This document shows, one piece after another, positions 1,349 to 49,220 of a DNA stretch of 64,000 bases (position 1 is the first letter of the stretch; the number at the start of each line of letters is the position of its first letter). Source of the stretch: a virus. The stretch lies in IMG/VR virus record IMGVR_UViG_3300042308_001511, positions 280,084 through 344,083 of that record; one strand, given 5' to 3'. The position numbers and the translations under genes were made by a program. The notes under the pieces were generated by a model. That model made no database searches, was not told the origin of the DNA, and worked only from the letters and a program-made list of their open reading frames with translations.

Positions 1349-1380
1349 AAATATAAGGATCTTTCCTGGATTAAACAAAG

Positions 1381-1415
1381 AAAGGTGCCAAAAATACACG
1401 TTTTTTGGCACCTTT
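1381..1415. terminator. Strong hairpin terminator
   Basis: AAAGGTGCCAAAAA pairs with TTTTTTGGCACCTTT around the loop tacacg. It lies just beyond the stop of the T9SS-type gene (1433) and should end minus-strand transcripts. A near copy is at 5729-5758. Confidence 0.8.
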
Positions 1416-1432
1416 CTATAATCTGTATCAGA

Positions 1433-2722
1433 TTAGTTTTTTATGGCTTTCAGTGATATTGTTTGTCTGTCCTTTGTTATGTTCAGAAAATAAGTCCCTG
1501 GTTGCAGCATCTGTGTATCGATTGAGATTGTGCCTCCGTCGAATACCTGGATTGTTTTCCCTTCGATGGTTGTAAATGTACCGTATGATCCAGGTGTCAA
1601 GCTAATCTCTATCCTATCGTTGAAAGGGTTCGGCCAGAACAACTCTTTAAGTTGTTGTTCACGTAAAGATAAGCTAGATGAGTCTTTTAGTCCTGTATTG
1701 TCCCACAAACACTTCACCGAGTCGAACTGGTAGACGTAGATAGTGTCTGTAGGCTGTACCGGTTTTGTGCCTTTGTTCTCCCATACGAGTGTTTTGATGT
1801 TGAACTGGTGGTTGTCCCAACAGGTTGTATCTGCAGGCCTGGTCGGTATTGCTCTTACAGAGTCCAGCCAGAAATATCCTGCGTACGGGTGGTACATCTG
1901 ACATACGGGAGTATTATCGTTACAATCAGATAGGAACTTACCAGATACTATAATACTATCGAGGTGAACGATTCCTGCGACCTGTGCTGCTGCGTAGTTA
2001 CAGATCTTATACTGAGTGTTGTCGTAGCTGATATAGTAGCCTGAGCAGTCTGTAAAGCCGAGTGCTACGTAGTTGGTGATTGGTCCTGGTTCTGTACCTG
2101 GTACAATCATTATAGGAACACCGGTTGGTTTGTATTCTTTGTTATTGGTTCCAACAACGGAACAACCGTTAGCGTCGGTGAATACGACGTATAGTTTAGG
2201 ATTGTATAGGTTCATAAAGCAACCACCTTGGTTTGGACCGTAGTATTGGGTGAATGTGTTGTCCCAGTTCTTTGTGTATACTTTATCAATCATAGCATAG
2301 TTAGCTTTATCGACTGAAAAGTAAATACAGGTTTGTTGGTTTTGAGGGTTCTGTGGATCTGGCATCTGTATAACATTGAAGGAAGTGACCTTCAGTGAGT
2401 CACAGTCTTTAGTGACAGCGATAGAGATGTTTATTAGTGTGTCCAACGAGAATTTGGCTAAGCCGTCATCTTTCTTCTTACCGAGTACCCAGTAGGTGCC
2501 TGGTACGAGTTCGCCTTTTGTTTTAAAGTTTGTGGCCAGTTCGGATCCCTGTATTGCAGCGTCTACGACTCTATAGATTGACCACTTTTTAATGTTTGTT
2601 CCTGTGGTGTCGACTGATACGGCACCATCATTGAAGTTTGGTCCAGTAGCGTTTGTGACCTTTACTTGTGAGTTTGCTAGGAATGCTAGCATAAATGAGA
2701 TTGTAGCTATTAGTTTTTTCAT
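1433..2722 (-). CDS. Secreted protein with T9SS type A C-terminal sorting domain
   Basis: 429 aa. Signal peptide MKKLIATISFMLAFLANSQ, then a Thr/Asn/Gly-rich beta-type body with many Cys (for example CNDNTPVC, DTTCWDN) that may form disulfides. The last ~75 residues have the type IX sorting-domain pattern: WPNPFNDRIEIS, a central IEGKTIQVFDGG strand and LQPGTYFLNITKD...KAIKN at the end. In Bacteroidota this domain takes a protein across the outer membrane and is removed at the surface. The gene is the last of a minus-strand cluster of exported proteins and is followed by a strong terminator. Its presence in a phage-like region suggests a product exported by the infected host, for example for superinfection exclusion or surface modification (inference). 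The body has no recognised catalytic motif. Confidence 0.85.
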   Translation of the reverse strand: MKKLIATISFMLAFLANSQVKVTNATGPNFNDGAVSVDTTGTNIKKWSIYRVVDAAIQGSELATNFKTKGELVPGTYWVLGKKKDDGLAKFSLDTLINISIAVTKDCDSLKVTSFNVIQMPDPQNPQNQQTCIYFSVDKANYAMIDKVYTKNWDNTFTQYYGPNQGGCFMNLYNPKLYVVFTDANGCSVVGTNNKEYKPTGVPIMIVPGTEPGPITNYVALGFTDCSGYYISYDNTQYKICNYAAAQVAGIVHLDSIIVSGKFLSDCNDNTPVCQMYHPYAGYFWLDSVRAIPTRPADTTCWDNHQFNIKTLVWENKGTKPVQPTDTIYVYQFDSVKCLWDNTGLKDSSSLSLREQQLKELFWPNPFNDRIEISLTPGSYGTFTTIEGKTIQVFDGGTISIDTQMLQPGTYFLNITKDRQTISLKAIKN

Positions 2723-2765: not shown

Positions 2766-2799
2766 AAAAAAAAACCGTTCTGTTTTGAACGGGTTTTTT
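2766..2799. terminator. Hairpin terminator
   Basis: AAAAACCGTTC pairs with GAACGGGTTTTTT around a short loop. It lies just past the stop of the Gln-rich protein gene (2813) on the minus strand. Confidence 0.75.
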
Positions 2800-2812: not shown

Positions 2813-3118
2813 CTATGGTCTGTTTTGGTTCTGTTGTTGCTGAGGTTGTGGACAGATGACGTTCATAGTGGCGCCGTAGACCTTTAGGCCCAACGGAGTG
2901 TCCGCACCGTGAAGTTGGTGCCACTGACCCTCTGTTTTCATACCAGGGTTCACCGCCTCACCCTGTTGTTGTGCTCTGTACTGGTCACAAAGACCGTTAG
3001 GGCCATATACCAAACCCTTAATACCCTGTTGTTGCTGTTGTTGAGTCATATTCTGTGAGAATACAAATCCTGTAAACAAAAACGACACTATAAAGGCAAT
3101 CACTTTACTTTTCTCCAT
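2813..3118 (-). CDS. Small secreted Gln-rich protein
   Basis: Start set at ATG 3118 (MEKSKVIAFIVSFLFTGFVF), which gives a clean signal peptide ending FSQ. The 101-aa product has two Gln tracts: QQQQQQ soon after the cleavage site and QPQQQQNQNRP at the C-terminus. In between are single Cys residues in GLCDQY and VICPQ that could pair. It overlaps the upstream gene's 3' end by about 19 bases. Function unknown. Confidence 0.7.
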   Translation of the reverse strand: MEKSKVIAFIVSFLFTGFVFSQNMTQQQQQQGIKGLVYGPNGLCDQYRAQQQGEAVNPGMKTEGQWHQLHGADTPLGLKVYGATMNVICPQPQQQQNQNRP

Positions 3119-3756
3119 CTTTTTATTATTTTTTTTATACGGCACCGAAACCAGCACCAGTTATATATTCCATTCCTAAAATCTCCCAAAAGGTACCAAA
3201 ATCTCCACCAAACCCTCGGCCAGAACCTCCAATCATTCTTCCTATCCTCAACCAAACGCTCTGACCTCATAACGTTGGCCCACTCATCGTAGTCTAAATA
3301 AGCCAACTCTGCGTCACCTATATCCCAAGACCCAGGTACCGACCAATCCTTTCCCATGTGACCTGAAAGTGCAAGAACACATACCTCCTCTAACAATGGT
3401 GAAACACCTATGTCTAATCGCTTACTAGCCCTACGAAAACGTCCAACATGCCAAGCATTGACATCTATCAGTGCCACGTAGAACTCGTAATGTACAAACG
3501 AAGAGTCGGGTATGCCATATCTACCCAGATCCAAAAGACGATCTTGTAACTGAAAGTAAGTAAGTTCGAACACAACACTACCATCACCAGAAAGACGATA
3601 ACCCAAGTCCCTATCGAAACCTGTTTCCCAGTCATGCGTGAACCAGTCGTACATCGCCTGCACCGGATCTGAATACTCCTCTACCCAATAACCCTGTGTA
3701 GGACTAAGAACACCATTTACCTTCCTAAGTGGTAATAGAACCAATAACCAGCACAT
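3100..3756 (-). CDS. Trp-rich exported or membrane-anchored protein, 218 aa
   Basis: I prefer ATG 3756 (MCWLLVLLPLRKVNGVLS), which overlaps the previous stop as TGATG, over an upstream TTG. A short hydrophobic N-terminus is followed by an aromatic-rich body and a very basic C-terminus (RCRIKKIIKRWRKVK). There are over a dozen Trp. Unusual composition and no recognised family. It lies in the exported-protein cluster. Confidence 0.55.
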   Translation of the reverse strand: MCWLLVLLPLRKVNGVLSPTQGYWVEEYSDPVQAMYDWFTHDWETGFDRDLGYRLSGDGSVVFELTYFQLQDRLLDLGRYGIPDSSFVHYEFYVALIDVNAWHVGRFRRASKRLDIGVSPLLEEVCVLALSGHMGKDWSVPGSWDIGDAELAYLDYDEWANVMRSERLVEDRKNDWRFWPRVWWRFWYLLGDFRNGIYNWCWFRCRIKKIIKRWRKVK

Positions 3757-4112
3757 CAATCGTAACAAATATGACCCTCCAAAGTACCAACACCGTAGAC
3801 GTGTCCTTGTACGTAAACCGTGTAGGTACCTGGTGGAATCTTAAATACACCATGTTCGAAAACTTGACTATAGTAATCACCAAACATAGTTATACCTGAA
3901 ATCTTAACTCCAGTCGCCTGACCATCACCATACTTCATAAACCTGACAGATATCCGTCCAGTCTTAGTCGTGAACGTACCGTTAGTCTGAGTTATGTTGG
4001 GTGTCGATTGCCAAGAAGACCTACGTCCCTGTGTGAAAATTGAACTGCACATCTCACATGAGAAACACCAAACAGAAAATAACAAAAAAACCAATGAAAC
4101 TAATATCCTCAT
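3756..4112 (-). CDS. Small secreted protein, 118 aa
   Basis: N-terminus MRILVSLVFLLFSVWCFSC is a signal peptide. The Cys after FS could be a lipidation site, though the lipobox is weak, and CEMCSS gives a second nearby Cys. The mature part is Gly/Thr-rich and beta-like (PPGTYTVYVQGHVYG), resembling a small beta sandwich. Stop overlaps the next gene's ATG (TGATG), so the two are probably coupled. Confidence 0.65.
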   Translation of the reverse strand: MRILVSLVFLLFSVWCFSCEMCSSIFTQGRRSSWQSTPNITQTNGTFTTKTGRISVRFMKYGDGQATGVKISGITMFGDYYSQVFEHGVFKIPPGTYTVYVQGHVYGVGTLEGHICYD

Positions 4113-4122
4113 AATATGATAT

Positions 4123-4491
4123 TTACTTACCCAGTATTTCTTTGTCAGTTGCTGACATAGATGTAACTACCATCGATAAGCCGGTGGCCATTACTGAGGC
4201 CCATTCAGGAAGTTTGAATATGACACAGATTATGCCTAATATGATGTAAATTAATATACCTATCAGTATTCCTTTACCTAAACTTTTCCAGGTCGGTGGA
4301 ACCTCATCTTCGTCTGCTACTGTAAGTGCCATTATGCCGGAACACACCGTTGCTATTGTTAGTAATAGATAGTATCCACCTGACCAGGTTCCACCGACCC
4401 ACCAGTTTAGTAACAGGTAGTAAAGTGTACCTGTAGCGAGTGTGGTTCCGAGTGCTTTGATGATTCTTGAGATAATTAATGGTAAGTTCAT
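4123..4491 (-). CDS. Small integral membrane protein, holin candidate
   Basis: 122 aa with three or four hydrophobic segments: residues ~13-30, ~38-57, ~72-92 and ~98-112, with a charged ADEDEVPP loop between the second and third. Size and topology fit phage holins, and it heads the exported-protein cluster. However, no endolysin is adjacent (the GH19 enzyme is at 61.9 kb), so holin is only a possibility. Confidence 0.65.
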   Translation of the reverse strand: MNLPLIISRIIKALGTTLATGTLYYLLLNWWVGGTWSGGYYLLLTIATVCSGIMALTVADEDEVPPTWKSLGKGILIGILIYIILGIICVIFKLPEWASVMATGLSMVVTSMSATDKEILGK

Positions 4492-4512
4492 AATAAAAAA
4501 TATTTTTGTTTT

Positions 4513-4545
4513 TATACAAAAATAAATAAAAGATTTGATATGGTG
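4513..4545 (-). promoter_or_regulatory. Repeated upstream element, copy 2
   Basis: It matches the element at 2732-2764 at 32 of 33 positions. In this copy the minus-strand box is TATTTTTG, a full match to TAnnTTTG. It lies about 22 bases upstream of the ATG at 4491. Confidence 0.65.
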
Positions 4546-4579: not shown

Positions 4580-5461
4580 ATGAAGTACATAAAGACTTAC
4601 GAAGTGCTGAAGGAGGCCAAGCTTCCCAGAAGGAGGTTCATACTACTGTCAGGCCCCAGCGCCTCTGGTAAGTCAACACTGGCAAAGAACCTAGGTGCCA
4701 CTCACTGGTACGATAAGATGTCCCAGGCGGTACTGATTGGCACCGACGACTTTATGAATAGAAAGGCCTTCGGGGTTATGAAAAGTCTTTGTAAGGCTGC
4801 GGGAATGCCTTTACTGGCCGCTATGATGAAGGACTGGCCGCACGTATTCGACCAATACAAAAAAGACTTCACAAAGTGGCGCAAGACGGCATCAACCGAG
4901 GAGCAGTCAATCTTCGACGACCTACATAAGAGGTTCCCTATCGATAAGGCGAAGGACAACGCTCCACACTTCCACCAAGACGGAAGGATCACAGGGATGG
5001 CCTGGTGTGCTGCACTTCTACCTAAGGAGTGTAAGACCATATTGTTCGACGACATATCTGTTGGTATAAAGAAGTACTTCGATGTTGATGAGTGGATCCT
5101 GTTCACACCATTTGACTGGTTGCTTAAGAACATAACCGACAGGAACTCAGATAAGGATAAGAGTGTTCATATAGACGTGAACTCGGAGGGTACCGCTATA
5201 TACCAGTACTGCCAATGGTGGCAGGCGTCTGCTGAGGCGGATCTCGACAACAAGATGTACACGGCGGATTCTGTTAGGACGATGCTGTCTGCGGCAGGTC
5301 ATAATGATCCAGATGAGGTTCTTTCGCTACTGGGTGTTAAGGGTCTTGATAACGGGTTCTATCTTACGACCAGGGACTGGATCGACGCGGGTTCGAGGAT
5401 TGTGAACACCAGGGATGTTTCTACCGGTAGGGCCGGGGATTTGCCGGGTGGCTTAAAATAA
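4580..5461 (+). CDS. N-tagged P-loop kinase-like protein
   Basis: 293 aa. The N-tag MKYIKTYEVLKEA is followed by a P-loop: FILLSGPSASGKST with the Walker A motif at residues 25-33. A later ILFDDIS (~residue 155) could be a Walker B-like strand. The remainder shows no recognised family. The overall plan suits a small-molecule, nucleotide or protein kinase of the P-loop class; the substrate is unknown. The LKEA end of the tag resembles the T4 prohead-protease site (cleavage after Glu), so the tag may target the protein into capsids. Codons are GC-rich relative to the LRR/LOG region. Confidence 0.75.
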   Translation: MKYIKTYEVLKEAKLPRRRFILLSGPSASGKSTLAKNLGATHWYDKMSQAVLIGTDDFMNRKAFGVMKSLCKAAGMPLLAAMMKDWPHVFDQYKKDFTKWRKTASTEEQSIFDDLHKRFPIDKAKDNAPHFHQDGRITGMAWCAALLPKECKTILFDDISVGIKKYFDVDEWILFTPFDWLLKNITDRNSDKDKSVHIDVNSEGTAIYQYCQWWQASAEADLDNKMYTADSVRTMLSAAGHNDPDEVLSLLGVKGLDNGFYLTTRDWIDAGSRIVNTRDVSTGRAGDLPGGLK

Positions 5462-5796: not shown

Positions 5797-6441
5797 ATGA
5801 GACTACTGAAGACATTCGAGGGATTCCACCTGGACGAGACAACACAGTTGATAACACACCTCTGCGAGGAACTGGGAGTTGACATAACATCCAGTGAAGA
5901 GATTGAGAGTGCGACAATATACACAACCGACTATTCTGAGTTGTCCGAACTAGAGATTGCTACGATACTAGAAGACCACATACCTATGCTGGGTGAGGGT
6001 AAAAGGATCGCGATGGCAATCGACCGGCTTAAGCCGATGAGGATATTCGTCTACGAGGGTAACCTGATTGATGTGATATTCTCCTACCTAGACTCAAGGC
6101 TCGGTGACATGGAGGTTGAGACCAACAAGAACAGGTGGGGTGAAGACACAATCGTGTACACAAAGGGTGGTTCGTGGTACTTCTGGCACTTCAAAGACGA
6201 CAGTGAGCTGAAGATATCCTACCAGAACGAGAACATACTCAACGAGATTGGATTGAAGAGCAAGCTAATAATGCCCAAAGTGGATCTCGAAGGGTTCATC
6301 GATTACATATCTGGGAACCACTACGAGCGGGGTGAGAAGATTACCGCGAACATATCGGCGGGATCCGTGAAACGTATGAACGTGGTGCATGAGTGGTTCT
6401 CCTCCAGGTTCGAGAAGTTCGACTACGTGGACTTCGTATAA
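5797..6441 (+). CDS. N-tagged hypothetical protein, 214 aa
   Basis: N-tag MRLLKTFEGFHLDE; the start is fixed by the TATATA box directly upstream. It is acidic, with a helical first third and a mixed alpha/beta centre (RIFVYEGNLIDVIFSYLDSR). It shares the FEEF/DE-x-TQLI opening with the minus-strand proteins at 6753 and 32706 (DEVTQIIIS), so these may be distant paralogs. Function unknown. It converges on the minus gene ending at 6445. Confidence 0.75.
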   Translation: MRLLKTFEGFHLDETTQLITHLCEELGVDITSSEEIESATIYTTDYSELSELEIATILEDHIPMLGEGKRIAMAIDRLKPMRIFVYEGNLIDVIFSYLDSRLGDMEVETNKNRWGEDTIVYTKGGSWYFWHFKDDSELKISYQNENILNEIGLKSKLIMPKVDLEGFIDYISGNHYERGEKITANISAGSVKRMNVVHEWFSSRFEKFDYVDFV

Positions 6442-8896: not shown

Positions 8897-9120
8897 ATTC
8901 CAAGTTGTTTCAGTTTCTCTTCTCTGTACTCGTCGGGCTCCAGGAATTGTAGGTGTCTGTTGTGAACGACCAGCTCGTACTCGGTCCCGTCGACGGTGAA
9001 GAAGACTAAGGTATAGTATTTGTTCGAGAATTCCGACTTGTAGAGACCACCACAGATGAGCGGCTCGTAACTGTAGTCCTTCAGCGTCGCGTCGTCCGAT
9101 ATGACCTTTACGTATTTCAT
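8893..9120 (-). CDS. Small C-tag protein, 75 aa
   Basis: MKYVKVISDDATLKDYSYEP, then CGGLYKSEF and short strands ending YREEKLKQLGI. The LxxGGLY segment may correspond to the LTxGKxY step of the CIS family, making this a divergent member. Stop and start codons overlap those of both neighbours. Confidence 0.7.
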   Translation of the reverse strand: MKYVKVISDDATLKDYSYEPLICGGLYKSEFSNKYYTLVFFTVDGTEYELVVHNRHLQFLEPDEYREEKLKQLGI

Positions 9121-9347
9121 ATCCCTAGTTCTTTTAGTCTCCGTTCCCTTTGTATCGCCAGGTACTCCTTGATTGGGTAGGACCAGTAGCCGACTCCGTC
9201 GTAGAATATGCTGAATGTGTCGGTCCCCACGTCGCTTACGACGCCTTCTACACCCACGAAACGGTTCATACCTCTATTGTAGTTAAGGATTGCCGAGTTA
9301 TTGAATGCGGGGAATTTGAATCCTTTCGCTATGTCTCCTATCTTCAT
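9117..9347 (-). CDS. KGF-family C-tag protein
   Basis: 76 aa: MKIGDIAKGFKFPAF, RFVGVEGVVSDV, YWSYPIKEYLAI and the tag RERRLKELGI. It is among the shortest intact members and so outlines the core of the family. ATGA overlaps on both sides. Confidence 0.75.
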   Translation of the reverse strand: MKIGDIAKGFKFPAFNNSAILNYNRGMNRFVGVEGVVSDVGTDTFSIFYDGVGYWSYPIKEYLAIQRERRLKELGI

Positions 9348-9622
9348 ATCCCAAGTTCTTTAAGTTTTTCTTCTCTCTGCAATACCAGGTATTCGTCCAG
9401 AGGATAGATCCAGTGCTGCATGTTTGGTTCTGCTGGCATTACGCGAAATGTATCTACGTGTATGGGTGTACCGATAAAGCCTATGACCAGCTCGTTCATT
9501 TTCGGCCTGACCTGCCTCGCGATACCTTCCACGCCCACGAACTGTTCCATTAGGTCGTTCCAGTGAACCCCACTCGAGTTTTCGAACCGGAATCCTTTTG
9601 CCTTGTCTCCACGCTTAATCAT
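9344..9622 (-). CDS. KGF-family C-tag protein
   Basis: Start set at ATG 9622 (MIKRGDKAKGFRFENSSG), matching sister genes, not the upstream ATG at 9649. Contains FVGVEGIARQV, a Met/Pro-rich insert and WIYPLDEYLVLQREEKLKEL-GI. The insert length before the WxYP element is the main difference between relatives. Confidence 0.75.
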   Translation of the reverse strand: MIKRGDKAKGFRFENSSGVHWNDLMEQFVGVEGIARQVRPKMNELVIGFIGTPIHVDTFRVMPAEPNMQHWIYPLDEYLVLQREEKLKELGI

Positions 9623-9629
9623 CTTTCTA

Positions 9630-9875
9630 TCAAAAATGGTCTGGATCATAAAAGTCTCTATCTATGAATATAAGATCAGAGACCGGTATTGTTTTATAAC
9701 CATCATCGAATGTTTTATTGTTTAGAATAAATGCTGTGCCGAAGTCAAACGAATAATCTGAATTTTGAACGCAGCATATCTTATAGGTATTATCATTGTA
9801 ATTGTATGATACTTTGACAATATCACCTTCTAATACTTCTATGGCAGTGTCTTTGTATTTGAGCTTTATTTTCAT
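9630..9875 (-). CDS. Hypothetical beta-rich protein, 81 aa
   Basis: MKIKLKYKDTAIEVLEGDIV opens like a small beta barrel. It ends IDRDFYDPDHF without a C-tag. It lies in the KGF array but has different sequence and lower GC. Its stop is 8 bases from the next gene's ATG. Confidence 0.65.
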   Translation of the reverse strand: MKIKLKYKDTAIEVLEGDIVKVSYNYNDNTYKICCVQNSDYSFDFGTAFILNNKTFDDGYKTIPVSDLIFIDRDFYDPDHF

Positions 9876-9937: not shown

Positions 9938-10279
9938 TCATATTCCTATTTCTTTTAGTTTTTCTTCTCTATCTCTTCTTAATATCTCATTATCAAAAGG
10001 TATCCAATTTTCATCAAAGCTATACTTATAGATTTTCTTATTATCTTGCCAAATAAGATAAGAAGAAAACTTAACTACATTACCAAGATAGTCTACTCCT
10101 GTAAAAGCTTCTTTGTGTATGCTTTTTCCAAAACCCACTTTTTGAGTTTCTATATCCCTGATTATTTTTAATAAATCTTCAAAATCAATATCTCGCTCTA
10201 TAATTTCTTCGCCAGTAGTTGATATATACTCACCGGGCTTTAAAAACTTTATTTTAAGTATTTTCTCTATTTCCATCAT
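9938..10279 (-). CDS. C-tag protein, 113 aa
   Basis: MMEIEKILKIKFLKPGEYIS, then an acidic helical middle (DIDFEDLLKIIRDIE) and a strand-rich second half, ending LRRDREEKLKEIGI. It is more AT-rich than its neighbours. The KxLKPGEYIS opening may be a variant barrel start. It overlaps the stop of 10276-10554 by ATGA. Confidence 0.7.
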   Translation of the reverse strand: MMEIEKILKIKFLKPGEYISTTGEEIIERDIDFEDLLKIIRDIETQKVGFGKSIHKEAFTGVDYLGNVVKFSSYLIWQDNKKIYKYSFDENWIPFDNEILRRDREEKLKEIGI

Positions 10280-10554
10280 ATCCCTAATTCTTTTATTCTT
10301 TCTTCTCTATACCATGACACCGGCATGAAGTAGGGATCGAACCAGGGTTCGATCCCAGGCGTGACCACAAGGTTCTCGTCGACCCACTGCTCTATCCAGT
10401 TACAGGTTAGACCATCGTCGGATTTGAGCTTGTAGATCCATTGTCCAAATGAGTCGAGCGCTCGGTCAGTTATCTCGTATGTCTTTCCCAGGACGAGGGT
10501 GTTATAGTTTTCCTCACCTTTCGTGCATATTACTCGTTCTCCTATTTCTAACAT
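10276..10554 (-). CDS. CIS-family C-tag protein
   Basis: 92 aa: MLEIGERVICTKGEENYNTL, VLGKTYEITDRA, YKLKSDDGL and the tag YREERIKELGI. The ICT and GKTYEIT elements place it in the CIS family. It carries a Pro/Trp-rich insert before the tag. Confidence 0.75.
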   Translation of the reverse strand: MLEIGERVICTKGEENYNTLVLGKTYEITDRALDSFGQWIYKLKSDDGLTCNWIEQWVDENLVVTPGIEPWFDPYFMPVSWYREERIKELGI

Positions 10555-16578: not shown

Positions 16579-17289
16579 TTAGAATAAGTTTAAGTATTGA
16601 GTTATTTCTTTTATCTCTTCAGGGTCAAAGGCACTTAGTAGTTCATCACCTTGTATTTCTTCCAAACTTTTCCCTTCTTTAGCGAGTTCTTCTATGTAGT
16701 CCGCTGCTGACTTTTTATTGGTCTCGTAGAATGCGAGGTGTTCAGTTGTTGGATACTTATCGATTGTACCGTCGTATACTTCTATGGTGAAGTAAACACC
16801 ATCTAAGTCGTTAAAGAGTTTCCTACTTTTCAACCAGTGATCTATGTTCTTTAGTCCGTGGAATGCTTGGCCCCATATGAACTTTACATCCGGTCTTGGG
16901 TTTTCTTTGTAGTAGTATTTAAGCATGTGTCCAATACCTTTTTCTTTATGGTCTGGATGCACAAATAAAGAAACACCTTCTATACCTGTAGAGTCGTCAC
17001 CTTCAAAGTCGTAGAAGTTACCGATTATGACTGGGAGCTTTGTTTTTTTGAGTATATACCCACCTACAATTTCACCGTTTATTTCTGCTACAATTGAAAC
17101 TGAATAATCAAGTTTATTGATAGAGTATTGGTCGTGTTTTTCTTTGGTCTTTGGATCTGCTAAGTCGCCCCAGAATTTACCAAAGTATTGGAACTTAATA
17201 TCCATACAGGTTCTCACATCGGCTTCAGTCATTGGTCTTATCGTTATGCCTTTGTTTAGAAATCCTTCGTATGTTTTCAGTATTTTCAT
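16579..17289 (-). CDS. N-tagged GNAT-family N-acetyltransferase
   Basis: 236 aa. N-tag MKILKTYEGFLNKG, then IRPMTEADVRTCMDIKFQYF (typical GNAT first strand and helix), INGEIVGGYIL, and VSLFVHPDHKEKGIGHMLKY, the acetyl-CoA-binding V-x-P-x-x-x-x-K-G-I-G signature (R replaced by K). The last ~60 residues are an extra helical region. Target unknown. If the N-tag directs packaging, this would be an injected acetyltransferase, analogous in logic to the injected T4 Alt. It is followed at once by the C39-like protease. Confidence 0.8.
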   Translation of the reverse strand: MKILKTYEGFLNKGITIRPMTEADVRTCMDIKFQYFGKFWGDLADPKTKEKHDQYSINKLDYSVSIVAEINGEIVGGYILKKTKLPVIIGNFYDFEGDDSTGIEGVSLFVHPDHKEKGIGHMLKYYYKENPRPDVKFIWGQAFHGLKNIDHWLKSRKLFNDLDGVYFTIEVYDGTIDKYPTTEHLAFYETNKKSAADYIEELAKEGKSLEEIQGDELLSAFDPEEIKEITQYLNLF

Positions 17290-18561: not shown

Positions 18562-19227
18562 ATGAAAATTAGAATGTTTGAGAATTGGTCACAAGACTTC
18601 GTGACAGATTTCACCGACAACGGTTTCGATGTTGATGTGAATGAATATACTATCAACGGACAGTATAAGGGTAAGTTCGTGGTTACACAGGTTTCCAGGT
18701 GGTTCGACGATATGTTGGGTAAGATAGATACCGAGTACAATATAATGAGGACTAAGACATTCTTTAATTCGATTACAGGGAATGCCAACTTCGAGGTTGT
18801 TGTTGCACCTCCTACGAGTGGAAACTCGATTGAGTTTATGTTGGATGGTGTCAAGCATGAGTTCTATATAAAATATGTCAGGTGTTTCGGTAGCGGATCT
18901 GAAATAGGCCTTGCGTTTGTGGGTAACCGTGGTGATGGAGATTCTGGAACGATTTATATCAGTGTAGTTGAGAGTCCTGTGAGGAAGACGAAGAAGATCC
19001 GTTTTGGTTACAACAACAGGACCAAAAACGTTCTTGTGTCGATGGATGTAGTGGGTAAGCTACTGGAACTAATCATCTCAGATAAATTAGAGGTAGGTGA
19101 TTATGGTGAGAGAAAGAAGTATAGTGAGTTAACTAATGAAGAGCTAATTATTCGTAAATTTGATGGTGGGATGACCAAGCAGAAGTTCGATTTACATATA
19201 GATGCAATAAAGAGTGTAGTGAGATGA
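18562..19227 (+). CDS. N-tagged hypothetical protein, 221 aa
   Basis: MKIRMFENWSQDFVTDFTDN is a shortened N-tag (no Y/F at the usual place). Mixed alpha/beta body with VAPPTSGNSIEFMLDG and FGSGSEIGLAFVGNRGDGDS. The C-terminus is basic. Its stop overlaps the start of the next N-tag gene (ATGAGATG), so the two are one operon. Confidence 0.75.
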   Translation: MKIRMFENWSQDFVTDFTDNGFDVDVNEYTINGQYKGKFVVTQVSRWFDDMLGKIDTEYNIMRTKTFFNSITGNANFEVVVAPPTSGNSIEFMLDGVKHEFYIKYVRCFGSGSEIGLAFVGNRGDGDSGTIYISVVESPVRKTKKIRFGYNNRTKNVLVSMDVVGKLLELIISDKLEVGDYGERKKYSELTNEELIIRKFDGGMTKQKFDLHIDAIKSVVR

Positions 19228-19856
19228 GGTACATAAAACTATATGAAGAGTTCTCCAAGAACGAGTTCGACCAGGTGATGATGTCAATCTGTGAGGATAT
19301 GTCCTTCGAGGTCTACGAAGATTTCCCTTCTACTGAGGATGTAAGGGTCTACTTGGTGGACGGTTTACCTAACATAGATCGTTCTAGGTATGAAGAGTAT
19401 TTGGGTGATGATTGGCATATTATTTCGAAAGAGTACAGGTATCTCGATAAGTGTATGGTTAGTTTCGTGAAGGGTGAGCCTAGTGATGCAGCTCTTAAGT
19501 GGTTGGAGGATGTGTATGGTGACCTGAGACGAGAAGAGGAGCATCTTCCTTCGACTGAATGGGGAGCTTATGGTGAGAAGGCGGGTATTTCCTACAACTA
19601 CATTGATGGTACTGGTAGGAAGATACTATCATTCGTTGTGCGTGATGTTTTAAATCAATCGATGGATCCGTTCGATATGGAATCTTCGGGTGGTACGAAA
19701 GTATATTTCAACACTGATGTGCGTGACTTCCTACGAGCTTGTTTCGGTCTGTCGGATTTATTTGCACATATTCTAAGAGATATAGTAAATATTTGGATTA
19801 AGGATGTGTATGGTATAAACGGTCATGTCTATCTTCTTCCTCCTAATAACAGGTAG
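19224..19856 (+). CDS. N-tagged protein, 210 aa
   Basis: MRYIKLYEEFSKNEFDQVMM, a paralog of 12621-13055 over the first ~100 residues (QVMMSICEDMSF, VYLVDGLPNIDRSRYEEYLG). The C-terminal half, with DPFDMESSGGTKVYFNTD, is not in the shorter paralog. Unknown function. Confidence 0.75.
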   Translation: MRYIKLYEEFSKNEFDQVMMSICEDMSFEVYEDFPSTEDVRVYLVDGLPNIDRSRYEEYLGDDWHIISKEYRYLDKCMVSFVKGEPSDAALKWLEDVYGDLRREEEHLPSTEWGAYGEKAGISYNYIDGTGRKILSFVVRDVLNQSMDPFDMESSGGTKVYFNTDVRDFLRACFGLSDLFAHILRDIVNIWIKDVYGINGHVYLLPPNNR

Positions 19857-32705: not shown

Positions 32706-33215
32706 TTATTCACTATAAAGGTGATGTGTCTCCGCTACGAGGTAGTCCATCAGAATAATGCTTCTTTCTTGATCGTCTTTACAATTTTCCCACATATCTT
32801 CTCCGTCCACGTATTTTCCGGTCTCGTCGTCGTAGATTCCTGAGAAGTATTGGCTTGCATAGCCACCGTCTTCTTGGCCCAGTACAGATTGTACTTCGTA
32901 GACCGCTTCGTTGAGGTCATCTACGAGTATAGAGTTCCACCATTTGGTTTCGTACGCGACGCAGTACCTGGTTATATCTCTTCCGGTTGCCTCCCATTCT
33001 AGTCTTATTTCCCAGCCAATCTCACTCAGCAAATACTCACATCGTTTGAGGTCTATTCCTTCTTTGTTGTCCTCGTTTGAATATTGCCATATCCTCAGCT
33101 CGGTTCCCGGTATTTCGATCCTGTCGGGGCTTACTTCTATATCCTCGAACATAGAGATGATGATTTGTGTCACCTCGTCAAATCCGAACTCCTCGAACAT
33201 CTTTATCCTTCTCAT
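32706..33215 (-). CDS. N-tagged acidic protein, 169 aa
   Basis: N-tag MRRIKMFEEFGFDEVTQIII. A clear paralog of 6753-7295: both have LRIWQY/FRIWSY, an acidic mid-region, and GEDMWENCKDDQERSIILMD near the end like GEDVWEYKHRRKDLILEYIV. Function unknown. A TATATATA box lies 5 bases before the ATG. Confidence 0.75.
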   Translation of the reverse strand: MRRIKMFEEFGFDEVTQIIISMFEDIEVSPDRIEIPGTELRIWQYSNEDNKEGIDLKRCEYLLSEIGWEIRLEWEATGRDITRYCVAYETKWWNSILVDDLNEAVYEVQSVLGQEDGGYASQYFSGIYDDETGKYVDGEDMWENCKDDQERSIILMDYLVAETHHLYSE

Positions 33216-40691: not shown

Positions 40692-40937
40692 TTATATTCC
40701 TAAATCACCTAATTTCTTTTCTCGTTGTAGTGCGTCCCATTCGGACTTCGGCATCATATAGTCTTTGTGTATCTGTCTATACATTTTGTTTTCATCTATC
40801 AGTGTCACATATACACCTGATAGGTTAGATACGTTCTCGTATTCCTTTCCTAAAATTAGAGTTCCGTCTCTGGACATTCTTTCCATTTTAGGTTGCCAAT
40901 CTTTCGTAGGTTTGTAGAAGACGTATATCTCTTTCAT
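40692..40937 (-). CDS. CIS-like C-tag protein, 81 aa
   Basis: MKEIYVFYKPTKDWQPKMER, LILGKEYENVSNLSGVYVTL, and LQREKKLGDLGI. GKEYENV matches the CIS family, though the MKxxC Cys is absent. ATGA link upstream. Confidence 0.7.
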   Translation of the reverse strand: MKEIYVFYKPTKDWQPKMERMSRDGTLILGKEYENVSNLSGVYVTLIDENKMYRQIHKDYMMPKSEWDALQREKKLGDLGI

Positions 40938-46215: not shown

Positions 46216-46548
46216 ATGAGAAATTTTTTGATTTTGGTTTTACTATTGACGGGATGTGCTAGACATCACTCTACTAACTATACTGTTTCGGTAGGGGAAA
46301 AGTTTAGTATAGAACATAGGTCAAATCCGAGTACTGGATATCATTGGGTCGTAGATACGAAGGGTGTTTGTGATATAGACTCTGTCTTATACGTACAGGA
46401 TCCTGCACCGGAAGGTTATTGTGGTGTCGGTGGTGTCGAAACTCACCATTTCACAGCACTTCATCAGGGTATTGATACACTTACCTTTGTTTATATGAGA
46501 GGTGATGATGCCGCCGAGGCTAGGAGGTACACCGTTTGGGTTCGTTAG
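46216..46548 (+). CDS. Chagasin-like (I42) cysteine-protease-inhibitor lipoprotein
   Basis: 110 aa. Lipoprotein signal MRNFLILVLLLTGC (lipobox Cys14). VSVGEKFSIEHRSNPSTGYH-W then GYCGVGGVETHHFTALHQGI-DTLTFVY, with a final YTVWVR. These match the I42 loops NPTTGYxW, GxGG and F-x-A-x-x-x-G-x-x-x-L, and the RPxW loop is reduced. I42 proteins inhibit papain-family (C1) proteases. It would lie in the envelope, presumably blocking extracytoplasmic proteases or protecting fibres. Convergent with the minus gene ending at 46545. Confidence 0.8.
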   Translation: MRNFLILVLLLTGCARHHSTNYTVSVGEKFSIEHRSNPSTGYHWVVDTKGVCDIDSVLYVQDPAPEGYCGVGGVETHHFTALHQGIDTLTFVYMRGDDAAEARRYTVWVR

Positions 46549-48642: not shown

Positions 48643-48975
48643 TTATATCCCTATTTTTCTTATCTGTATCTCCCTTACTGCCGCTCTTAGTGAACTCTTG
48701 ATTGGTTCCTCGAAGTTCTTTATTTTTATTACGTCTCGTTGTCCGAGATTTTCCTTATCGTATACCTCATCACCGATGACATCCCTTGTCACACCGCACT
48801 CCTCGTCGAGTATTGGCTCGGTCACTATGTGGTGAAACCTAATATCATCACCGTCAACCTCTATACCAGTAATAAACACGTTCATCGCCATCTTCTCGTG
48901 AATCGGAAGGTGTTTGTTAGTCTCGTAGATGTGTGTTCTTATTATGAAATTGTCTTCCTCGTCTGTGTGTATCAT
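48643..48975 (-). CDS. C-tag protein, 110 aa
   Basis: MIHTDEEDNFIIRTHIYETN, VFITGIEVDGDDIRFHHIVT, an acidic middle with CGVTRDVIGD, and the end AVREIQIRKIGI. Larger than most; unrecognised. Confidence 0.7.
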   Translation of the reverse strand: MIHTDEEDNFIIRTHIYETNKHLPIHEKMAMNVFITGIEVDGDDIRFHHIVTEPILDEECGVTRDVIGDEVYDKENLGQRDVIKIKNFEEPIKSSLRAAVREIQIRKIGI

Positions 48976-49220
48976 ATTCCTAGTTCTTTAAGTTTTTGTT
49001 CTCTTACCTCTTGTATGTCTCTGAAGTGTTCAGCGTCGTACTTCCTAAACTTTCCGTCTTCACACTTCACTACATAAGATGGTTTTCCTGGTTTGTATGT
49101 ATTTGGATCGTATGTGGTTGGTGTTAGTTCGTATTCATAAATATTACCATATATAAGTATGTATTCGTAACCACCACGATGTTTTGGTATACTTAAATCT
49201 ATTTTAGACTGACATTTCAT
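48972..49220 (-). CDS. CIS-like C-tag protein, 82 aa
   Basis: MKCQSKIDLSIPKHRGGYEY, ILIYGNIYEYELTPTTYDPN, KCEDGKFRKYDAEHFRDIQE and VREQKLKELGI. CIS-type layout with Cys at residue 3. Confidence 0.7.
   Translation of the reverse strand: MKCQSKIDLSIPKHRGGYEYILIYGNIYEYELTPTTYDPNTYKPGKPSYVVKCEDGKFRKYDAEHFRDIQEVREQKLKELGI

What the first reader, a model, noticed from the sequence alone, without database searches (positions are those of the whole stretch)
1433..2722. Phage-region protein with a T9SS sorting domain
It carries both an export signal and a complete C-terminal sorting domain (PNPF...LQPGTYFL...KAIKN). A virus using the host T9SS to display its own protein on the cell surface is unusual; roles could be receptor masking or superinfection exclusion.
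Basis: partly seen in the sequence, partly recalled or inferred. Interest (0 to 1): 0.7.

Follow-up and report, generated by a model that had tools for sequence, protein, structure and literature searches.

The report
Megaphage protein tagged for T9SS export
A giant bacteriophage of Bacteroidota carries a gene for a protein with both addresses needed to be exported by its host's type IX secretion machine, and many of its giant relatives carry similarly tagged but otherwise different proteins, which suggests that these viruses routinely decorate the surface of the cells they infect.

Summary
Window 1433-2722 (minus strand, 429 aa) has a Sec signal peptide (MKKLIATISFMLAFLANS|Q) and, at its extreme C-terminus, a type A T9SS sorting domain above the curated cut-offs of Pfam (30.9/27 bits) and NCBIfam (24.3/23). 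Modelled with ten relatives (pLDDT 86), the domain matches solved T9SS cargo domains, and it keeps the near-invariant lysine (K425) that contacts PorV. The record is phage: a 344 kb virus contig with a structural protein 53-54% identical to those of 634-642 kb huge phages (Mahaphage clade). The tag recurs across this lineage: above cut-off in 4 of 5 named huge phages and 8 of 50 related contigs, and in 0 of 14 control genomes. Most tagged proteins also have a signal peptide, but the passengers differ. The passenger here has no homologue in any collection searched. "A virus using T9SS" is not new: a cryoconite phage (2020) and crAss-like phages (2019) have it, and UniProt phage entries are annotated so. 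I judge it a genuine, new member of a known kind; lineage-wide recurrence in megaphages is the part I did not find reported. Receptor masking or superinfection exclusion is plausible but untested.

The parts
1433..2722 (-). CDS, 429 aa, phage-encoded candidate T9SS type A cargo
2669..2722 (-). Sec signal peptide, residues 1-18 (MKKLIATISFMLAFLANS), predicted cleavage before Q19 (Q-rule)
   Evidence: read from the sequence; no SignalP run; Q-rule after PMC5837995
1637..2668 (-). Passenger, residues 19-362, ten cysteines (2.4% of the mature protein against 1.3% in window ORFs), no detectable homologue
1436..1636 (-). T9SS type A C-terminal sorting domain, residues 363-429
   Evidence: PF18962 and TIGR04183 over cut-off; AF2 model pLDDT 85.8; Foldseek to mirolase CTD, PorZ, and NucA and FspA CTDs bound in the translocon
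1448..1450 (-). K425, fifth residue from the C-terminus, at the place of the near-invariant lysine that contacts PorV
   Evidence: read from the sequence; role of the lysine from PMC10994853
2728..2760 (-). 33-bp promoter-like element just upstream of the CDS; one of only two copies in 344 kb
1379..1417 (-). Intrinsic-terminator-like hairpin after the CDS
2775..2792 (-). Terminator-like hairpin ending the upstream operon, so the CDS appears monocistronic
4509..4541 (-). Second copy of the promoter-like element (one C/T difference), upstream of the four-gene operon
4123..4491 (-). First gene of the operon: 122-aa small multi-span membrane protein
   Evidence: no homologue
3756..4112 (-). Second gene: 118-aa exported protein
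3100..3756 (-). Third gene: 218 aa, ATG overlaps the preceding stop (TGATG), signal-like N-terminus
   Evidence: no homologue in phages
2813..3118 (-). Fourth gene: 101-aa exported Q-rich protein (MEKSKVIAFIVSFLFTGFVFS|Q)

Best explanation
A huge phage related to the Mahaphage clade encodes a genuine T9SS cargo protein. During infection the host would export it by Sec, remove the signal peptide at S18|Q19, fold it in the periplasm, and hand its C-terminal beta-sandwich to the SprA-PorV translocon. The C-terminal domain would then be cleaved and the passenger anchored on the surface or released. The addressing (signal peptide plus type A CTD, phage origin) is shown at sequence and model level. 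Actual secretion, anchoring and host identity are inferred. The most likely purpose is to remodel the surface or surroundings of the infected cell, by adhesion, receptor masking or exclusion of rival phages; this part is inference, with a probability of about 0.35 for exclusion or masking specifically.
For: Curated-threshold hits of two models. CTD at the extreme C-terminus with K425 in register. A profile of 17 phage CTDs finds solved T9SS CTDs (8glk, 8glj, 5hfs, 5ag8, 7pq4, 8qb1). The AF2 CTD model (pLDDT 86) matches mirolase CTD at E 2.5e-4, PorZ at 3.5e-4, and translocon-bound NucA and FspA CTDs at TM 0.73-0.74. Phage context. Recurrence in relatives with signal peptides. Orthologous tagged proteins persist: about 190 aa in W01, W02 and G018 beside DnaJ and a tail-fibre-like gene, with a fourth relative in G031, and 633/638 aa in G015 and G009. 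No PorV homologue found in G000 or nine relatives, so the host's machine would be needed. Huge phages over 634 kb are predicted to infect Bacteroidetes (PMC7162821), the phylum that has T9SS.
Against: Scores of this CTD are only a little above the cut-offs. The passenger has no homologue and no recognised domain; the single-sequence model is uninformative (pLDDT 33). The host is not identified, so that it has a T9SS is not shown. CTDs are not always interchangeable between species (PMC11285876). No expression or secretion data. 42 of 50 related contigs showed no CTD, though most are fragments.
Confidence: 0.75

Rival explanations
1. The gene is a host cargo gene recently picked up by the phage (a 'moron') with no function for the phage.
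For: No homologue in any related phage; the passenger is an orphan; CTD genes are common in Bacteroidota hosts (background knowledge).
Against: It has its own promoter-like element, shared in the whole 344 kb only with a neighbouring operon of exported and membrane proteins, and its own terminator. No homologue in the host genome collection either (close relatives only). Tagged proteins recur across the lineage, and some are conserved as orthologues.
Confidence: 0.2
2. The protein is a virion or lysis component and the CTD-like fold is a generic Ig-like domain, not an export tag.
For: Ig-like domains are common in tailed-phage structural proteins; some weak Foldseek hits are generic Ig folds; it lies beside an operon with a small multi-span membrane protein that could be a holin.
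Against: Curated T9SS models pass and the best fold hits are true T9SS CTDs. A Sec signal peptide would remove it from the cytoplasm where virions assemble. The C-terminal position and lysine are kept.
Confidence: 0.08
3. The locus is host DNA: a chimaeric contig or contamination.
For: Portal (PF07230), terminase (PF03237) and phrog_2 models gave no convincing match in this incomplete record.
Against: IMG/VR virus record; phage structural and head-tail adaptor proteins; 53-54% identity of a 1052-aa protein to huge phages. The N-terminal (MKxIKxFExF) and C-terminal (R-E-x-K-L-K-E-L-G-I) motifs occur on window genes and on genes elsewhere in the record and in relatives. No tRNA genes in the window.
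Confidence: 0.03

Closest known systems
Cryophage T9SS cargo genes (PMC7468147, Nat Commun 2020)
   Same: Phage-encoded proteins with T9SS type A sorting domains, variable between phage variants; [quoted passage not shown]
   Different: Those passengers are an endoglucanase, a GH39 hydrolase and a PA14 protein; this one has no recognisable domain and lies in a huge phage related to the Mahaphage clade.
crAss-like BACON phages with T9SS sorting domains (PMC6949934)
   Same: Phage ORFs carrying the sorting domain, one together with BACON repeats.
   Different: Different phage lineage; those ORFs lie next to the head genes.
Huge (Mahaphage) phages LR745206, LR756502, LR756501, LR756504 (PMC7162821)
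   Same: Share the large structural protein; four of the five named huge phages tested carry a CTD over cut-off; the paper noted predicted surface proteins that may affect infection by other phages.
   Different: Passengers differ; in the main text the word 'secretion' does not occur.
F. johnsoniae NucA, FspA and RemZ type A CTDs bound to SprA-PorV (PMC10994853; 8glk, 8glj, 8gl8)
   Same: CTD fold and conserved C-terminal lysine.
   Different: Bacterial cargo, not phage; transport shown experimentally.
Porphyromonas gingivalis phage Q-rule proteins (PMC10367356)
   Same: Phage proteins whose signal peptides expose an N-terminal glutamine, taken as adaptation to the host export pathway.
   Different: T9SS is not mentioned in that paper's main text.

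Membership tests
T9SS type A cargo protein | Sec signal peptide | tested here: met
   Sequence (n-h-c regions, S18|Q19); 19 of 21 CTD proteins against 21 of 179 background by a crude hydropathy test; no SignalP available
T9SS type A cargo protein | Sorting domain above curated thresholds | tested here: met
   PF18962 30.9/27 bits; TIGR04183 24.3/23 bits
T9SS type A cargo protein | Domain at the extreme C-terminus | tested here: met
   Residues 363-429 of 429
T9SS type A cargo protein | CTD beta-sandwich fold | tested here: met
   AF2 pLDDT 85.8; Foldseek to 8qb1, 5m11, 8glk, 8glj
T9SS type A cargo protein | Near-invariant lysine near the C-terminus | tested here: met
   K425, fifth from the end, as in most of 17 phage CTDs; role from PMC10994853
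T9SS type A cargo protein | T9SS- and PorV-dependent secretion, CTD removal | not testable with these tools
   needs an experiment
T9SS type A cargo protein | Host with a T9SS | not testable with these tools
   host unknown; Bacteroidota inferred from kin (PMC7162821) and the Q-rule
Mahaphage / huge phage lineage | Shared large structural protein | tested here: met
   53-54% identity over 98% of 1052 aa
Mahaphage / huge phage lineage | Placement in terminase and capsid trees, complete genome size | tested here: inconclusive
   PF03237 and phrog_2 found nothing and the portal hit was below cut-off in this incomplete 344 kb record; no tree made
Superinfection-exclusion protein | Blocks adsorption or entry of other phages | not testable with these tools
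   no sequence match to the defence-system library either

The most novel reading that the evidence does not exclude
Huge phages of Bacteroidota systematically use the host T9SS to coat or arm infected cells: a stable address (signal peptide plus type A CTD) joined to rapidly exchanged passengers (cohesin/dockerin-like, F5/8 lectin-like, propeller, orphan), as a lineage-wide strategy rather than an accidental acquisition.
Probability: 0.4. Interest if true: 0.75.

Novelty: new member of a known kind. Interest (0 to 1): 0.52.

Why it matters
If secreted, these proteins let the largest known phages alter the outside of their host cell during infection, with consequences for rival phages, cell adhesion and the shared environment. 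T9SS CTDs can be species-specific (PMC11285876), so a phage's CTD might also give a clue to its host. The recurrence in uncultured megaphages turns single anecdotes into a testable general pattern.

Tried and rejected
Homologues of the passenger: none in viral contigs, phages, genome contigs, plasmids, PDB or 18 related records (no positive control for that search). Single-sequence AlphaFold of the whole protein: pLDDT 33, discarded. A SprB-repeat or gliding-adhesin reading of residues 20-200 (pattern recalled from memory): not supported by Pfam at E<1. Wzt_C match (19.5 bits, cut-off 30.4): below cut-off and overlapping the CTD, rejected. Homologues of the upstream operon: none. Phage-encoded PorV: none, but the control set held no T9SS-positive genome over the cut-off. 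Host inference from the DNA ligase: no match.

Full report
WHAT IS THERE. The ORF lies at 1433-2722 on the minus strand, 429 aa. Residues 1-18 form a Sec signal peptide and Q19 follows the predicted cleavage site, in keeping with the Bacteroidetes Q-rule (PMC5837995, PMC10653852). Residues 363-429 are a T9SS type A sorting domain above the curated cut-offs of Pfam PF18962 (30.9 against 27 bits) and NCBIfam TIGR04183 (24.3 against 23). No other CTD is found in the 344,083-base record. The gene seems to be its own transcription unit: a terminator-like hairpin before it (2775-2792) and after it (1379-1417), and a 33-bp promoter-like element directly upstream. That element has exactly one other copy in the whole record, upstream of the adjacent operon of one small membrane protein and three apparently exported proteins (4123-4491, 3756-4112, 3100-3756, 2813-3118). 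Joint regulation of these two units is inferred from this.

IS IT A REAL CTD. Seventeen CTDs from this phage and its relatives align with conserved PNP, two invariant glycines and a C-terminal lysine in most rows. A profile made from them finds solved T9SS CTDs in the PDB: NucA and FspA CTDs from the translocon complexes, gingipain RgpB, mirolase. Repeat proteins such as WD-40 also score on that list, by summing many weak repeats; they are not taken as evidence. The modelled CTD of this protein (11 sequences, pLDDT 85.8) matches mirolase CTD and PorZ at E below 0.001 and the translocon-bound NucA and FspA CTDs at TM 0.73-0.74. K425 is the fifth residue from the end, where the near-invariant lysine of type A CTDs contacts PorV (PMC10994853).

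IS IT PHAGE. Yes. The record is an IMG/VR virus record with tail-fibre, virion-structural and head-tail adaptor proteins. A 1052-aa protein near its start is 53-54% identical, over 98% of its length, to proteins of the 634 and 642 kb huge phages LR745206 and LR756502, and 35% to the 735 kb phage. These sizes match the largest genomes of Al-Shayeb et al., which cluster in Mahaphage and are predicted to replicate in Bacteroidetes (PMC7162821). Terminase and portal models gave nothing convincing, but the record is probably about half a genome, judging by the size of its relatives.

HOW COMMON IS IT IN KIN. PF18962 is over cut-off in 4 of 10 named relatives: LR745206, LR756502, LR756501 (two genes) and LR756504. 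A fifth huge phage, LR756500, gives a sub-threshold match; Tenacibaculum PTm1/PTm5, PAU and two Lak phages give none. Among 50 related IMG/VR contigs, 8 carry it, 10 genes over cut-off in all. The near relatives have about 1.7 per Mb and the 19 most distant contigs none in 2.1 Mb. No control genome passes. Of 21 such proteins, some with sub-threshold CTDs, 19 have a signal-peptide-like N-terminus by a crude test, against 21 of 179 ORFs in the phage.

PASSENGERS. They differ: cohesin- and dockerin-like, F5/8 type C, a two-component-regulator propeller repeat, a Fibrobacter major domain (with its CTD internal, an exception), and orphans. Yet some are kept as orthologues: a protein of about 190 aa beside DnaJ and a tail-fibre-like gene in three phages, with a fourth relative in G031, and a 633/638-aa protein in a conserved exported-protein island in two. 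This speaks against chance acquisition as the whole story. The passenger of the present protein has no homologue anywhere searched, and its ten cysteines fit an extracytoplasmic protein.

MECHANISM. Best supported: Sec export, periplasmic folding, recognition of the CTD by the host SprA-PorV translocon, CTD removal, and surface anchoring or release. These steps are those known for bacterial cargo (PMC10994853) and are inferred here. No PorV homologue was found in this record or nine relatives, so the machine would be the host's. What the passenger does outside is not known. I rank surface remodelling of the infected cell first (adhesion, receptor masking, exclusion of rivals), because the huge-phage authors and the Cryophage authors suggest the same for their surface proteins, and because passengers turn over quickly, as expected in conflict. 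This remains an inference.

NOVELTY. Phage-encoded T9SS cargo has been reported in Cryophage (PMC7468147) and crAss-like phages (PMC6949934), and BFVD lists phage proteins annotated with the domain. A library search for T9SS together with jumbo phages returned one paper, on a Tenacibaculum isolate and its phage, which I did not read further; the library is incomplete. The present gene is a new member of a known kind. The recurrence across the megaphage lineage appears to be the new part.

Noticed in passing
window, e.g. 9117-9347, 9344-9649, 10276-10554, 40692-40937, 48972-49220 (all minus): A shared C-terminal tag, roughly R-[DE]-x-[KR]-[LI]-x-x-[LI]-G-I-stop, ends 46 of 133 window ORFs (49 of 179 with L003 and L005; shuffled ends give 1.3 on average). 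With the tag removed these 46 ORFs fall into 37 sequence groups without mutual similarity, and the tag is also seen in relatives (G025, W01, G011). It looks like a genuine tag on unrelated small proteins and deserves its own study.
   Followed up: partly
window 4580-5461, 5797-6441, 16579-17289, 19224-19856, 32706-33215 and others; L003: A shared N-terminal motif, roughly MKxIKxFExF, starts 9 window ORFs and 5 in L003, and recurs in relatives. From memory it resembles the T4 capsid-targeting sequence of internal head proteins, so it may mark proteins packaged in the virion.
   Followed up: partly
window 46216-46548 (+): A lipoprotein-like chagasin-family (I42) peptidase inhibitor (65.7 bits, cut-off 27.2), unusual cargo for a phage; possibly acts on envelope or rival proteases.
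   Followed up: no
L005 18226-18666 (+) and 545-1672 (-): By eye an SmpB-like protein (matches phrog_6791, E 5e-44) and an S1-like repeat protein, near a thioredoxin-like and a ClpP-like gene: translation and quality-control functions in the phage.
   Followed up: no
L003 15097-15792, 17249-18043 (both minus): Two exported proteins that read like outer-membrane beta-barrels, without a Pfam match; L003 15807-16454 is lectin-like.
   Followed up: no
LR756501 around 654257-654469 (L030 5379-6719): A CTD in the middle of the protein, followed by a Fib_succ_major domain; odd for a C-terminal signal.
   Followed up: no
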